From a virus: a DNA stretch of 38,251 nt. Each line of letters begins with the position of its first letter. Within the stretch, counting starts at the first letter, position 1. Where the stretch lies: the IMG/VR virus record IMGVR_UViG_3300025949_000056, positions 1-38,251 of that record. One strand, written 5' to 3'. The position numbers and the translations under genes are program-made. Below are positions 13,958 to 17,487 of this stretch, piece by piece. Under the pieces are notes generated by a model. That model worked only from the letters and a program-made list of their open reading frames with translations. It did no database searches and was not told the DNA's origin.

Positions 13958-14782
13958 TCAGTGCTCCTTCTTCGATCCGAGCGCCCACCCAGCAACACAC
14001 AGGGCTACACCAAGGAGCAGGGCCATGCCGCCGATGCGGAGGAACTTACTGGTCTCCGCACCTGTGTTGGCTAGGGTGTTTGAGGCTGTTGGGCCGGCGC
14101 CCTGAACCATCACCGGCCCAACAGTCGCCTCGGCGGTACCAAAACCGCTACTCGGGTTGCTGCTGTCGGTAAGCGTGGCGGAGGCCGGAGTCGCTTTCAC
14201 AGGCGAGGAGTGCGTTGATGTCTGCGGCGATGTCGTAGCCGATGGTGTGGGCGACGTGGGCGAGGAACTCAGCCCGCTGCTCATCGGAGAGCTGGTCGGC
14301 GAAGGTGGTGTTGTCGTCGACGAAGTGGGCAAAGGTGAAGTTGATGAGGTCGGCGAGGACCCTGTGGTGGTCACCGGCGACGTTAAGGGTGAAGTGACTG
14401 GCGCCGTAGGTGAGCTTGACGTCGAGGCTGATTTCGTCGGGCACGGTTTAGTCGCTTTCTGCGTGCTGGGCGCGGTACCCATAGGAACCCCACCAGGACC
14501 GACGGAGATCGTTCTGGACGGGCTGCTGTGGGACGGCGAGACGGACATCGATCCAGTCGATGAACCACTGGACTTCCCGCTCCAACTCGGCCACGGACCA
14601 TGGCTGTGCGTCGGACACGGTGTTCTCCCTGAAGTAGCGTGAGCGGGCACCAAAGCCCACGGACCAGACAAAAACCCAAGAACGAACAACCCGCCGAAGA
14701 TCAACAACTTTGCCCGCCGGGTCAACCGCCAATCCGGATCCCCACGATGATCCGAATACCGGAACTCATCCATCGGACTCAT
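13958..14782 (-). CDS. Probable sortase-anchored surface protein (LANTG), Ser/Thr/Pro stalk
   Basis: A 274-residue frame. Residues 21-48 are a basic then hydrophobic segment (RRAKLLIFGGLFVLGFLSGP) like a signal or membrane anchor. Residues about 55-225 are a Ser/Thr/Pro-rich stalk. LANTG stands at 237-241, followed by a hydrophobic helix and a basic GSKKEH tail, a textbook cell-wall sorting signal of the LAxTG class used by actinobacterial class E sortases. The ATG overlaps the upstream gene as ATGA and the next gene starts one base after its stop. Oddly, residues 55-212 are overprinted by two convincing genes in another frame, so the stalk may partly be a by-product of their codons. If expressed it would decorate the host envelope, perhaps blocking superinfection. 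Confidence 0.6.
   Translation of the reverse strand: MSPMDEFRYSDHRGDPDWRLTRRAKLLIFGGLFVLGFLSGPWALVPAHATSGRTPCPTHSHGPWPSWSGKSSGSSTGSMSVSPSHSSPSRTISVGPGGVPMGTAPSTQKATKPCPTKSASTSSSPTAPVTSPLTSPVTTTGSSPTSSTSPLPTSSTTTPPSPTSSPMSSGLSSSPTSPTPSATTSPQTSTHSSPVKATPASATLTDSSNPSSGFGTAEATVGPVMVQGAGPTASNTLANTGAETSKFLRIGGMALLLGVALCVAGWALGSKKEH
14148..14444 (-). CDS. Hypothetical protein nested inside wall-anchor gene (98 aa)
   Basis: A 98-residue protein from the GTG at 14444, starting four bases after the preceding nested gene ends. Its codons end in C or G almost throughout, the typical bias of this phage, unlike the overlapping anchor frame. The fold looks natural: strands at the start (EISLDVKLTYGASHFTLNVA), then helices (LADLINFTFAHFVDD; DEQRAEFLAHVAHTIGYDIA). 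No family recognised. The ribosome site is weak, so translation is probably coupled to the upstream nested gene. The codon evidence makes it likely real. Confidence 0.65.
   Translation of the reverse strand: MPDEISLDVKLTYGASHFTLNVAGDHHRVLADLINFTFAHFVDDNTTFADQLSDEQRAEFLAHVAHTIGYDIAADINALLACESDSGLRHAYRQQQPE
14448..14618 (-). CDS. Hypothetical protein nested inside wall-anchor gene (56 aa)
   Basis: A 56-residue protein from the GTG at 14618, preceded by AGGGAGAA at good spacing. The sequence is natural and Trp-rich (AQPWSVAELEREVQWFIDWI; RRSWWGSYGYRAQHAE), suggesting a compact helical protein. It lies wholly within the wall-anchor frame, in the same alternative frame as the next nested gene, with a TAA stop four bases before it. 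Function unknown. Confidence 0.6.
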   Translation of the reverse strand: MSDAQPWSVAELEREVQWFIDWIDVRLAVPQQPVQNDLRRSWWGSYGYRAQHAESD

Positions 14783-15213: not shown

Positions 15214-15342
15214 TCAGGACGCTCGCGAGGCGTGTTGGGGCGGCGAGTCCGTCCAGCCACTTCTGCTGCCGGCATCGCCCCCGATGGGCGCCGGTGAAAC
15301 GGGGGGCTGCTCGCTCTTACGTGTGGCTTCGCCCCGGCGCAT
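15214..15342 (-). CDS. Small basic Pro/Ser-rich protein after cro (42 aa)
   Basis: A 42-residue frame whose ATG overlaps the cro-like stop as TGATG, so it would be translated by coupling. The product is basic then Pro/Ser-rich (MRRGEATRKSEQPPVSPAPI) with no recognised fold. In related phages the gene after cro can be an excisionase, but no helix-turn-helix is visible here. Real coding is uncertain. Confidence 0.35.
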   Translation of the reverse strand: MRRGEATRKSEQPPVSPAPIGGDAGSRSGWTDSPPQHASRAS

Positions 15343-15563
15343 CAGGCTGCGACCTTTGAGAAGAAGCTGCTCACCGGCACGTTCAGGAAGGTCGCTATCT
15401 CCTGAAGGTCTTCGATCCGGAACGAGGCCTTGCCTGCGAGGCGTCGGCTGATCGTGGCCTGGGTTACGCGCAGATGTCGGGCCAAATCGCCCTGTTGCTT
15501 CTGCTGCCGGGCCATCTCTGCCCGCACCTCCGCCGCTACTGCTTCGGTCAGAGTTTGCGTCAT
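15342..15563 (-). CDS. Cro-like helix-turn-helix regulator
   Basis: A 73-residue XRE-type protein. The helix-turn-helix is about residues 22-45 (QQGDLARHLRVTQATISRRL), followed by FRIEDLQEIATFLNVP, the usual HTH_3 ending. It is divergent from the repressor gene and heads the long leftward early operon, the position of a Cro. Residues 10-20 (AAEVRAEMARQ) are identical to residues 22-32 of the repressor, showing common descent. It ends in KVAA, like the short -AA ends of the repressor and integrase. The promoter is so close that the mRNA may be leaderless. Confidence 0.82.
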   Translation of the reverse strand: MTQTLTEAVAAEVRAEMARQQKQQGDLARHLRVTQATISRRLAGKASFRIEDLQEIATFLNVPVSSFFSKVAA

Positions 15564-15571
15564 GGGTACTT

Positions 15572-15598
15572 TTTATAAGCTGAGCTGAAAAATGTCAA
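15572..15598 (-). promoter_or_regulatory. Leftward early promoter (PL/PR-like) upstream of cro-like gene
   Basis: On the minus strand a perfect TTGACA (15593-15598) is followed 15 bases later by TATAAA (15572-15577); a 17-base spacing would use TAAAAA. The cro-like ATG is at 15563, so transcription would begin at or next to the start codon, implying a leaderless message, which is common in actinobacteria. It would drive the entire early operon. Confidence 0.65.
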
Positions 15599-15611
15599 GT
15601 CAGCTGATCAG
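15578..15611. promoter_or_regulatory. Palindromic operator candidates over the early promoter
   Basis: Three short palindromes or near-palindromes flank the -35 box: AGCTGAGCT (15578-15586, odd-length near-palindrome), TCAGCTGA (15600-15607) and CTGATCAG (15604-15611). They share an AGCTGA core on both sides of TTGACA, as expected for repressor or Cro sites. This is inferred only from symmetry and position. Confidence 0.4.
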
Positions 15612-15641
15612 ATATGCGTCCGCGTGTCGCTTACATGCCAG

Positions 15642-15698
15642 GGATGTAGATCACGCTCTGTGCCCGTTGCTACATCCGTGCATGGGATATACGCTCTG
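15642..15698 (+). promoter_or_regulatory. Repressor promoter region with inverted and direct repeats
   Basis: GGATGTAG (15642-15649) and CTACATCC (15670-15677) form a perfect 8-bp inverted repeat, weakly extended by CATG on both sides. ACGCTCTG occurs as a direct repeat at 15653-15660 and 15691-15698. A weak TTGCTA (15667) and TATACG (15688) could form the repressor promoter, ending only ten bases before the ATG at 15702. These look like autoregulatory sites. Confidence 0.4.
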
Positions 15699-15701
15699 AG
15701 C

Positions 15702-16091
15702 ATGACAAGTGCACCGATTGACGAATACACGCCACCGGATCTGGATCGCTACACACGCCTGATCGCTGCCGAGGTCAGGGCTGAGATGGCACGCCAGAAC
15801 ATCACTCAGACGGCGATCGCCAGGAATGTCCTGGGCACCTACCCGTCGAAGGCTCAGCCACGCTTCAAGGGCCTGATCCCCTTCACGGCCGCTGAGCTGC
15901 TAGCTATCGCCGATTACCTCGACACAGATGTCGTCCAGTTCCTCGCCGCAGCCAAGGGCAACCGGCCTACACCCTTCGGGGGCGTCATAGGTTCTCAACG
16001 GTACGAGGAGTCGTACATGTCACTCATCGCTGGTACGGCCGAGATTACGTCTCCTCGGACCGGACAGCTAGCTCTGGTCGGCGCTGCGTAA
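15702..16091 (+). CDS. Immunity repressor with possible degradation tag
   Basis: A 129-residue protein from the ATG at 15702; a GTG 26 codons upstream would run through the promoter repeats and is unlikely. Residues 15-80 form a helix-turn-helix domain (TQTAIARNVLGTYPSKAQPR; FTAAELLAIADYLDTDVVQF) sharing AAEVRAEMARQ with the Cro-like protein. The last about 44 residues (from 86) have no clear fold and end in LALVGAA, resembling an ssrA-type tag. Order and orientation match BPs-type phages in which attP lies inside the repressor gene and integration removes the unstable tail. The repressor role is strongly suggested; attP inside the gene is inference. Confidence 0.72.
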   Translation: MTSAPIDEYTPPDLDRYTRLIAAEVRAEMARQNITQTAIARNVLGTYPSKAQPRFKGLIPFTAAELLAIADYLDTDVVQFLAAAKGNRPTPFGGVIGSQRYEESYMSLIAGTAEITSPRTGQLALVGAA

Positions 16092-16092
16092 A

Positions 16093-16128
16093 GCAAATGT
16101 TTGCAAACTTTGCCTATTGCGCTTTGCC
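16093..16128. repeat. AT-rich inverted/direct repeats between repressor and integrase (attP arm-site candidates)
   Basis: GCAAATGTTTGC (16093-16104) and GCAAACTTTGC (16103-16113) are adjoining inverted repeats, and CTTTGCC recurs at 16108-16114 and 16122-16128. The interval 16092-16192 is AT-rich against the GC-rich genome. Such repeats next to int are typical of integrase arm-type binding sites; they could also terminate the repressor message. The core attP cannot be fixed without host sequence. Confidence 0.4.
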
Positions 16129-16192
16129 ATAACACAGGCCTAACGTCCGGGATGCGCGCATACCATACTTAGAACACATAACAGGGGCAAAC

Positions 16193-17041
16193 GTGACAAC
16201 AACGGACCAAGACACAGTGAAAACATTCGCCGAAGCCATGGGCGCGCTGAAACTCCGCCCTATCACGATCAGTAAACGGCTCGACATCATCCGCCGACTC
16301 TCGTTCTTCCTCGGCGACACCAATCTCCTCGCAGCTGACCTTGACCAGCTCCGCGAGTTTCAGAAGACCTTCGCGAACCTCAGCCCTGCCTCCGTCAACG
16401 TGTACACACGGCACGTGCGGGCGTTCTACCTGTGGGCGTTCGACACCGAACGGATCCCCGCCAACACCGCGGCCAGGCTCCGCGTCCCCCGAGTCCCCAA
16501 AGCGGTACCCCACCCCACATCGATGGCGGACCTTCGAGTAGTGCTGAAGTGCGCACCCAACCACCTACGCACCACCTACATCCTGGCGTCGTTCGCTGGT
16601 CTCCGCTGCGGCGAGATCGCCCGCCTACGCACCGAACACCTCGACCTCAACACCCCCACCCCAACCGCCCTCATCGACGGCAAAGGCGGCAAACAGCGCA
16701 TCGTGCCGCTCCTCTCCCCCGTAGCGAACGAACTCCGCTACCGAGCTCGAGGATGGGTCGTCACCCAAACGAACGGCGGGAACTGGTCACCCGAATCCCT
16801 ATCGGCGCAGTCCACCGCGTTCCTGCACTCGATCGGCGTCCCCACCACCCTGCACTCCATGCGGCATTTCTTCGCCACCATGGCTGTGCGGCTCACCAAG
16901 GACACCCTGTTGGTTCGAGACCTCCTGGGCCACGCCAGCGTCCAAACAACTGAGGGGTACATGCAGATGGACCCCACTTCGGCGTTCAGCCAATTGGACG
17001 GGCTGAACAGCATCTTCAGCGACCTACTCGGAGCGGCTTGA
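16193..17041 (+). CDS. int: Tyrosine recombinase integrase
   Basis: A 282-residue tyrosine integrase. The N-terminal SAM-like core-binding domain covers about 8-95, and the catalytic domain about 105-282 with R138 (GLRCGE), K167 (GGKQR), H221..R224 (HSMRH), H247 (LLGHAS) and nucleophile Y256 (EGYMQM), all present. It is shorter at the N-terminus than lambda-type integrases. The GTG at 16193 follows AGGGGC. It ends in SDLLGAA, again an -AA terminus like the repressor and Cro-like proteins, which in BPs-type phages makes integrase short-lived. It directs site-specific integration into the host chromosome. Confidence 0.95.
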   Translation: MTTTDQDTVKTFAEAMGALKLRPITISKRLDIIRRLSFFLGDTNLLAADLDQLREFQKTFANLSPASVNVYTRHVRAFYLWAFDTERIPANTAARLRVPRVPKAVPHPTSMADLRVVLKCAPNHLRTTYILASFAGLRCGEIARLRTEHLDLNTPTPTALIDGKGGKQRIVPLLSPVANELRYRARGWVVTQTNGGNWSPESLSAQSTAFLHSIGVPTTLHSMRHFFATMAVRLTKDTLLVRDLLGHASVQTTEGYMQMDPTSAFSQLDGLNSIFSDLLGAA

Positions 17042-17073
17042 CAGTCCTCTTACTCGCAGTCAGGATCACGCTC

Positions 17074-17487
17074 ATGGGCTTATTCCGCGAAACACCCGAG
17101 CAGAAGGCCGCACGGCTGGCCCGGCGCGCTGAGGGTTTCCAGAAGATCCGCGATAACCAGGCAGCACGAAAGGCTGCCCACGAAGCGCGGGCGTTCAAAG
17201 GGCTGAAGATCGATGGAGACCAGATCTCCTACCAGGGAGAAGGTGGGCCCCTCGCGGGTGCCCGCGCAACAGTGGAAAGCGAGGGCGACATCGACCGGAG
17301 GATCACCGCGACACGCCTCATCCTGACCGGCCCGTTCGCCCTCGGCATGCGGAAGAAGAGGGACACTCGACAGCTCTATCTGACTGTTGAAGGTGTCGGC
17401 TTCGGATTTGTGGTGGAAGTCCACCCGAGCAAGAGCCTTGAGGCGAGACGACTAGCTGCCCAGATCAACGCCGCGAGTACCGCCTGA
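17074..17487 (+). CDS. Unknown protein co-oriented with integrase (137 aa)
   Basis: A 137-residue protein from the ATG at 17074 (AGGATC upstream); an earlier TTG overlapping the int stop is less likely. The first 45 residues are a charged helix (TPEQKAARLARRAEGFQKIR). The remainder alternates strands (LKIDGDQISYQ; RLILTGPFALGMRKKRDTRQ; LYLTVEGVGFGFVVEVHP) and ends in a helix (LEARRLAAQINAA). This resembles short PH-like/DUF4429-type bacterial domains, with low certainty. Being on the lysogenic strand, it may be expressed from the prophage. Confidence 0.6.
   Translation: MGLFRETPEQKAARLARRAEGFQKIRDNQAARKAAHEARAFKGLKIDGDQISYQGEGGPLAGARATVESEGDIDRRITATRLILTGPFALGMRKKRDTRQLYLTVEGVGFGFVVEVHPSKSLEARRLAAQINAASTA

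What the first reader, a model, noticed from the sequence alone, without database searches (positions are those of the whole stretch)
15342..17041. Immunity switch with the architecture of integration-dependent immunity
A Cro-like gene is divergent from a repressor, and the repressor is followed on the same strand by a complete tyrosine integrase. The repressor has a 60-70-residue HTH domain and then about 44 residues of unstructured-looking tail. This is the gene order of BPs-type mycobacteriophages, where attP lies in the 3-prime part of the repressor gene and integration creates a shorter, stable repressor. The sequence shows the order and tail; the mechanism is inference. If right, lysogeny is decided by integration itself, in a phage apparently outside the classic group.
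Basis: partly seen in the sequence, partly recalled or inferred. Interest (0 to 1): 0.85.

Follow-up and report, generated by a model that had tools for sequence, protein, structure and literature searches.

The report
Phage switch likely set by integration
This uncultured phage carries a compact lysis/lysogeny switch (Cro, repressor, integrase) whose layout and destruct-tag-like protein ends match a known design in which inserting into the host chromosome trims the repressor into its stable form; the insertion site itself could not be located, so the mechanism is likely but unproven.

Summary
Cro-like 15342-15563(-), repressor 15702-16091(+, 129 aa: HTH, then a 44-residue tail) and a complete XerC-like tyrosine integrase 16193-17041(+, 282 aa, no N-terminal arm-binding domain) are all there. 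I add a discriminating feature: repressor (-LVGAA) and integrase (-LLGAA) both end in ssrA-like -AA, and Cro ends -VAA; only 1 of 39 other window genes does. The integrase's nearest named relatives (M. abscessus MabC prophages, phiT45-1, Whack, Phrann) share the layout; MabC and Phrann carry attP inside the repressor. In a comparator with the same tags and a 102-bp gap (L130/L133), phage and provirus forms show integration cutting 26 codons, tag included, off the repressor. Across 27 repressor-integrase pairs, all six with a tRNA-derived core inside the repressor have an -AA repressor; none of the 12 untagged ones has such a core. Integration-dependent immunity is the best reading (about 0.7), but attP was not found: no tRNA core in the window, no credible attB in about 570 actinobacterial genomes. 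The system is already described in mycobacteriophage, Gordonia, M. abscessus and Bifidobacterium phages: a new member of a known kind, perhaps with a non-tRNA attB.

The parts
15342..15563 (-). Cro-like HTH protein, 73 aa, C-terminus -FFSKVAA
   Evidence: 58% identical to L050 Cro
15564..15701 (.). divergent control region between cro and rep
15632..15648 (.). imperfect palindrome TACATGCCAGGGATGTA (7 of 8 pairs), candidate operator
15670..15701 (+). conserved segment CTACATCCGTGCATGGGATATACGCTCTGAGC just before the rep start: likely rep promoter with operator
   Evidence: 24/32 identical to L050 at the same distance from the start codon, about 1 in 1000 shuffles
15702..16091 (+). repressor, 129 aa; HTH (BetR) at residues 20-89, C-terminus -LALVGAA
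15957..16091 (+). 44-residue repressor tail; predicted to hold attP
   Evidence: tail without family match and with weak codon-position bias; attP location inferred from relatives
16000..16017 (.). palindrome GGTACGAGGAGTCGTACA, one candidate attP core
   Evidence: not proven, other palindromes exist
16083..16088 (+). codons for the repressor's terminal Ala-Ala (ssrA-like end)
16092..16192 (.). 101-bp rep-int gap, low GC, with a palindrome at 16096-16111 (the rival place for attP)
16193..17041 (+). tyrosine integrase, 282 aa, XerC-like, no N-terminal arm-binding domain, C-terminus -SDLLGAA
17033..17038 (+). codons for the integrase's terminal Ala-Ala (ssrA-like end)

Best explanation
This is an integration-dependent immunity switch of the kind first described for mycobacteriophage BPs. 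Shown here: a Cro-like gene divergent from a repressor that is followed on the same strand by a simple (arm-domain-less) tyrosine integrase, with repressor and integrase both ending in -AA. Inferred: after infection the full-length repressor and integrase are made together and both are degraded through their C-terminal tags, so lytic growth is the default. When enough integrase survives, it recombines an attP in the 3' part of the repressor gene (most likely about 15985-16075) with a host attB. That cuts the tag off the repressor and leaves a stable product of very roughly 95-125 residues (most likely near 100) that shuts the Cro/early promoter, so integration itself sets immunity. The attB is probably not a tRNA gene.
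For: Gene order and domains. Both repressor and integrase end -AA; with Cro, 3 of the 4 -AA ends among 42 window genes are the switch genes (chance 0.0003 for all three, 0.007 for rep plus int). Nearest named integrases belong to phages with the same layout; MabC prophages have attP annotated inside the repressor, with an 18-bp core at about codon 91-97 of a roughly 129-codon repressor (PMC8092301), and Phrann has a tRNA-derived core inside its repressor. Best PDB match is 5vfz 'Gp33', which from memory I take to be the integrase of Brujita, a cluster I phage; cluster I uses this system (PMC4557955). L130/L133 (rep -AA, int -AA, 102-bp gap) against proviruses L132/L135/L128/L131/L134: the junction lies inside rep and the provirus repressor stops at the host border, losing 26 residues and the tag. 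Survey of 27 pairs: a tRNA T-arm core inside rep in 6, all with rep -AA, and in none of the 12 pairs whose repressor lacks -AA. Mapped core-to-int distances of 116-120 bp (MabC) and 181 bp (L130) would place a core inside this rep. The rep tail loses coding periodicity.
Against: No attB or attL/attR found: blastn of the rep tail and gap against 396 Actinomycetota genomes and 175 of one order gave only chance-level matches, none in a tRNA, the only recurrent one apparently inside ftsZ. No tRNA T-arm in the rep tail, nor a full five-pair one anywhere in the window, and no meaningful Rfam match. Palindromes also lie in the rep-int gap, so attP could be there. The closest relative, L050, has neither tag. 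The Galaxy precedent shows that the layout can occur without attP in the repressor.
Confidence: 0.7

Rival explanations
1. Conventional temperate switch with attP between rep and int (16092-16192): integration leaves the repressor intact, and the -AA ends simply tune protein turnover.
For: The gap is 101 bp, low in GC (47.5%) and holds a 16-bp palindrome AATGTTTGCAAACTTT at 16096-16111; L050 has a similar gap of about 110 bp; no core identified in rep.
Against: Mapped core-to-int distances in relatives are 116-181 bp, more than this gap. A tag that destroys the repressor would be counterproductive in a lysogen unless removed. L130/L133 has a 102-bp gap and still has attP in rep.
Confidence: 0.2
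2. Galaxy-like arrangement: the layout is ancestral, but attP lies elsewhere in the phage genome (or integration is no longer used), and immunity is independent of integration.
For: Arthrobacter phage Galaxy has this order with attP five genes away (PMC5513430); no att core could be identified here.
Against: Galaxy lacks degradation tags whereas both are present here; no full tRNA T-arm anywhere in the 38-kb window; the integrase active site is intact.
Confidence: 0.08
3. The -AA ends are compositional accidents of a GC-rich genome and the resemblance to the BPs system is only gene order.
For: Ala is common; -AA ends occur in 4-7% of coding-like ORFs in related loci.
Against: Only 1 of 39 other window genes ends -AA; 15 of 27 repressors of this layout end -AA and all with a tRNA core in rep do.
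Confidence: 0.02

Closest known systems
BPs-type integration-dependent immunity (mycobacteriophage clusters G, I, N, P; e.g. BPs, Phrann)
   Same: Divergent cro-rep, rep-int on one strand, ssrA-like repressor end, integrase without need for arm-type sites.
   Different: Those phages use tRNA attB sites; no tRNA core here. Sequence identity is low (Phrann Int 30%).
M. abscessus MabC prophages (prophi104-2, prophi62-3) and phage phiT45-1
   Same: Best-scoring named integrase relatives (31-34%); cro/rep/int layout; viral repressor of about 129-133 codons; MabC attB is not a tRNA and attP is annotated in rep.
   Different: Their repressors and integrases lack ssrA-like ends; the window's have them. 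Their core does not align with the window above shuffle level.
L130/L133 phage group (IMG/VR) with provirus forms L128, L131, L132, L134, L135
   Same: -AA on repressor and integrase, about 100-bp rep-int gap, related Cro; truncation of rep on integration visible in the sequences.
   Different: tRNA-derived core; integrase and repressor only distantly related to the window's.
L050 (IMGVR_UViG_3300036793_000125)
   Same: Closest relative in all three proteins and in the rep promoter.
   Different: No -AA on repressor or integrase; longer Cro and repressor tail.
Arthrobacter phage Galaxy
   Same: Same gene order (PMC5513430).
   Different: No tags, attP outside the repressor: order without the mechanism.

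Membership tests
Integration-dependent immunity (BPs type) | Cro-like gene divergent from the repressor, with operators between | tested here: met
   operator binding itself not tested, conserved segment and palindromes
Integration-dependent immunity (BPs type) | Repressor immediately upstream of the integrase on the same strand | tested here: met
   101-bp gap, no terminator-like site in it
Integration-dependent immunity (BPs type) | attP inside the repressor reading frame | tested here: inconclusive
   no attB or junction found; placed there only by analogy with mapped relatives
Integration-dependent immunity (BPs type) | Viral repressor ends in an ssrA-like tag (-AA) | tested here: met
   -LALVGAA; function of the tag not tested
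Integration-dependent immunity (BPs type) | Integrase ends in an ssrA-like tag (common, not universal) | tested here: met
   -SDLLGAA
Integration-dependent immunity (BPs type) | Simple integrase without arm-type DNA-binding domain | tested here: met
   282 aa, SAM-like domain hit (below Pfam's cut-off) starts at residue 11, XerC-like over residues 12-260
Integration-dependent immunity (BPs type) | attB overlaps a tRNA gene (mycobacteriophage members; not in MabC) | tested here: not met
   no full T-arm or tRNA in the window; this is not required, MabC uses non-tRNA sites (PMC8092301)
Integration-dependent immunity (BPs type) | Provirus encodes a shorter repressor | not testable with these tools
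   the record is the phage form (switch in the middle of the genome); no lysogen available
Integration-dependent immunity (BPs type) | Long repressor unstable, short one active | not testable with these tools
   needs experiment

The most novel reading that the evidence does not exclude
A three-tag version of the switch: Cro as well as repressor and integrase is proteolytically controlled, and the attP is a short non-tRNA core inside the repressor. In support, the Cro-like proteins of these actinophage switches end with two Ala/Ser residues in 12 of 15 cases (-AA, -ASA, -AAS) against about 10% of coding-like ORFs; I found no mention of Cro tags in the papers read.
Probability: 0.25. Interest if true: 0.5.

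Novelty: new member of a known kind. Interest (0 to 1): 0.36.

Why it matters
It extends a switch in which site-specific recombination itself sets immunity to an uncultured phage with no near relative in the collections searched, with the best-scoring named integrases using non-tRNA sites. The survey also suggests a testable new detail: the Cro-like partner may be degraded through its C-terminus too, so that host proteolysis would set all three players.

Tried and rejected
tRNA-type attP: no T-arm in rep or gap, no full one in the window, no meaningful Rfam hit. Matching the MabC core to the window: below shuffle level. Shared att motif between window and L050: none beyond 8 bp. attB searches in 396 and 175 genomes: chance-level matches; the recurrent 36-bp match at 16059-16094 reads, by eye, as the interior of ftsZ and was rejected. 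Repressor structure: pLDDT 41, not used. Searches with Int, Rep and terminase to find the host: only distant hits. Long inverted repeat 15999-16062 as an att structure: in the top 4 of 151 genome windows, not specific enough.

Full report
WHAT IS THERE. The window is a 38,251-base virus record. Structural genes (terminase, portal, protease, capsid, tape measure, lysin) run on the minus strand from the right end to about 17.5 kb. The early genes (Erf, RecE, replication initiator, methylases) run on the minus strand leftwards from the Cro-like gene. Between them three plus-strand genes oppose this: repressor, integrase and a 149-aa gene. The switch sits in mid-genome with phage genes on both sides, so this is the phage form, not a provirus, and it can hold no host junction.

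Cro 15342-15563; repressor from ATG 15702 with HTH at residues 20-89 and a 44-residue tail; integrase 16193-17041 with a complete active site and a XerC-like architecture that has no room for an N-terminal arm-binding domain. Its best match among solved structures is 5vfz 'Gp33', which I take, from memory, to be the integrase of Brujita, a cluster I phage; cluster I is one of the groups that use this immunity system (PMC4557955).

Repressor ends -LALVGAA, integrase -SDLLGAA, Cro -FSKVAA. Only one of the 39 other window genes ends -AA. The chance that all three would be among the four is 0.0003. ssrA-like ends on repressor and integrase are the second hallmark of integration-dependent immunity (PMC4557955, PMC8092301, PMC9262239) and are what Arthrobacter phage Galaxy, which has the same layout but attP elsewhere, lacks (PMC5513430).

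RELATIVES. Integrase hits in phage records include M. abscessus prophages of cluster MabC, phiT45-1, Rhodococcus phage Whack, Phrann and Gordonia phages (about 29-34% identity); those examined have the repressor upstream of the integrase. The MabC-like records annotate attP inside the repressor; the 18-bp core AGTTCTTACTCACGAGTA lies at about codon 91-97 of a roughly 129-codon repressor, and the MabC attB sites are not tRNAs. The nearest relative overall is an IMG/VR contig, L050 (Int 48%, Rep 54%, Cro 58%). It conserves the DNA just before the repressor start (24/32; about 1 in 1000 shuffles), with a palindrome-like ACATSC..GCATG element in the presumed repressor promoter. It lacks the tags.

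A DIRECT EXAMPLE OF THE MECHANISM IN A SIMILAR LAYOUT. Loci L130/L133 carry the uninterrupted switch (rep ends -LPVRAA, int ends -SWHSAA, 102-bp gap, Cro related to the window's). Loci L131, L132, L134, L135 and L128 are provirus forms. BLAST breakpoints and end sequences put the junction inside rep, at the antisense 3' end of a tRNA, and the provirus repressor reads into a TGA at the host border, losing 26 residues including -AA. So sequence alone shows integration-dependent truncation in a system with the same tags and the same gap as the window.

SURVEY. Of 27 repressor-integrase pairs, 15 repressors end -AA; 6 contain a tRNA T-arm inside rep, all of them -AA, and none of the 12 other repressors has one. 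Background for -AA is about 4-7%. The rep tail in the window, L050 and several mapped cases has weaker codon-position GC bias than the HTH part, as expected if the DNA there is constrained by att function; this is supportive, not decisive.

WHERE IS attP? Not found. The window has no full tRNA T-arm, no tRNA and no Rfam match at curated thresholds. BLAST of the tail and gap against 396 genomes spread over Actinomycetota and 175 of one order gave chance-level hits; the one recurrent hit, 36 bp at 83-86%, reads as the interior of ftsZ and is rejected. With mapped core-to-int distances of 116-120 bp (MabC) and 181 bp (L130), a core here would end at about 16010-16075, inside rep. A palindrome, GGTACGAGGAGTCGTACA, lies at 16000-16017, but palindromes also occur at 16058, 16096 and 16149, the last two in the rep-int gap, which keeps the rival alive.

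VERDICT. What it works like: an integration-dependent immunity switch, probability about 0.7. Membership: the defining feature, attP within rep, was tested and is inconclusive, so I call it a probable member. The kind is known and already reported beyond the classic mycobacteriophages. Possible new elements are a tagged system with a non-tRNA attB, and Cro proteins that also end in Ala/Ser pairs (12 of 15 against about 10%).

Noticed in passing
15342-15563 and Cro-like genes of L050, L064, L089, L100, L120, L121, L124, L127, L129, L130, L136: Cro-like proteins of these switches end in two Ala/Ser residues in 12 of 15 cases (background about 10%), as if Cro also carried a weak degron; not mentioned in the papers read.
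   Followed up: partly
15999-16062; L050 3248-3298: A long inverted repeat inside the repressor tail (17-nt arms, 88% complementary, 30-nt loop) enclosing the MSLIAG codons; L050 has a 9-bp perfect one (33-nt loop) at the equivalent place enclosing LTLIRG. Function unknown.
   Followed up: partly
13958-14782 (-): ORF with a signal-peptide-like start, Ser/Thr/Pro-rich linker and a LANTG plus hydrophobic stretch plus KK end (sortase-type sorting signal). It overlaps two ORFs (14148-14444, 14448-14732) in other frames that have the better coding bias; possible overprinted surface protein.
   Followed up: partly
16092-16130: Cluster of related motifs in the rep-int gap (GCAAATGTTTGCAAACTTTGCC, then CTTTGCC again), perhaps protein-binding sites.
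   Followed up: no
L002 4445-6489; L003 2296-4623: IMG/VR phages with a divergent HTH pair, a repressor-like 148-150-aa protein ending -VAA, and an integrase further downstream: possibly more members of this switch type.
   Followed up: no
17038-17487 (+): 149-aa gene (phrog_26783, unknown function) overlapping the integrase stop codon, a position where genes expressed from the prophage often sit.
   Followed up: no
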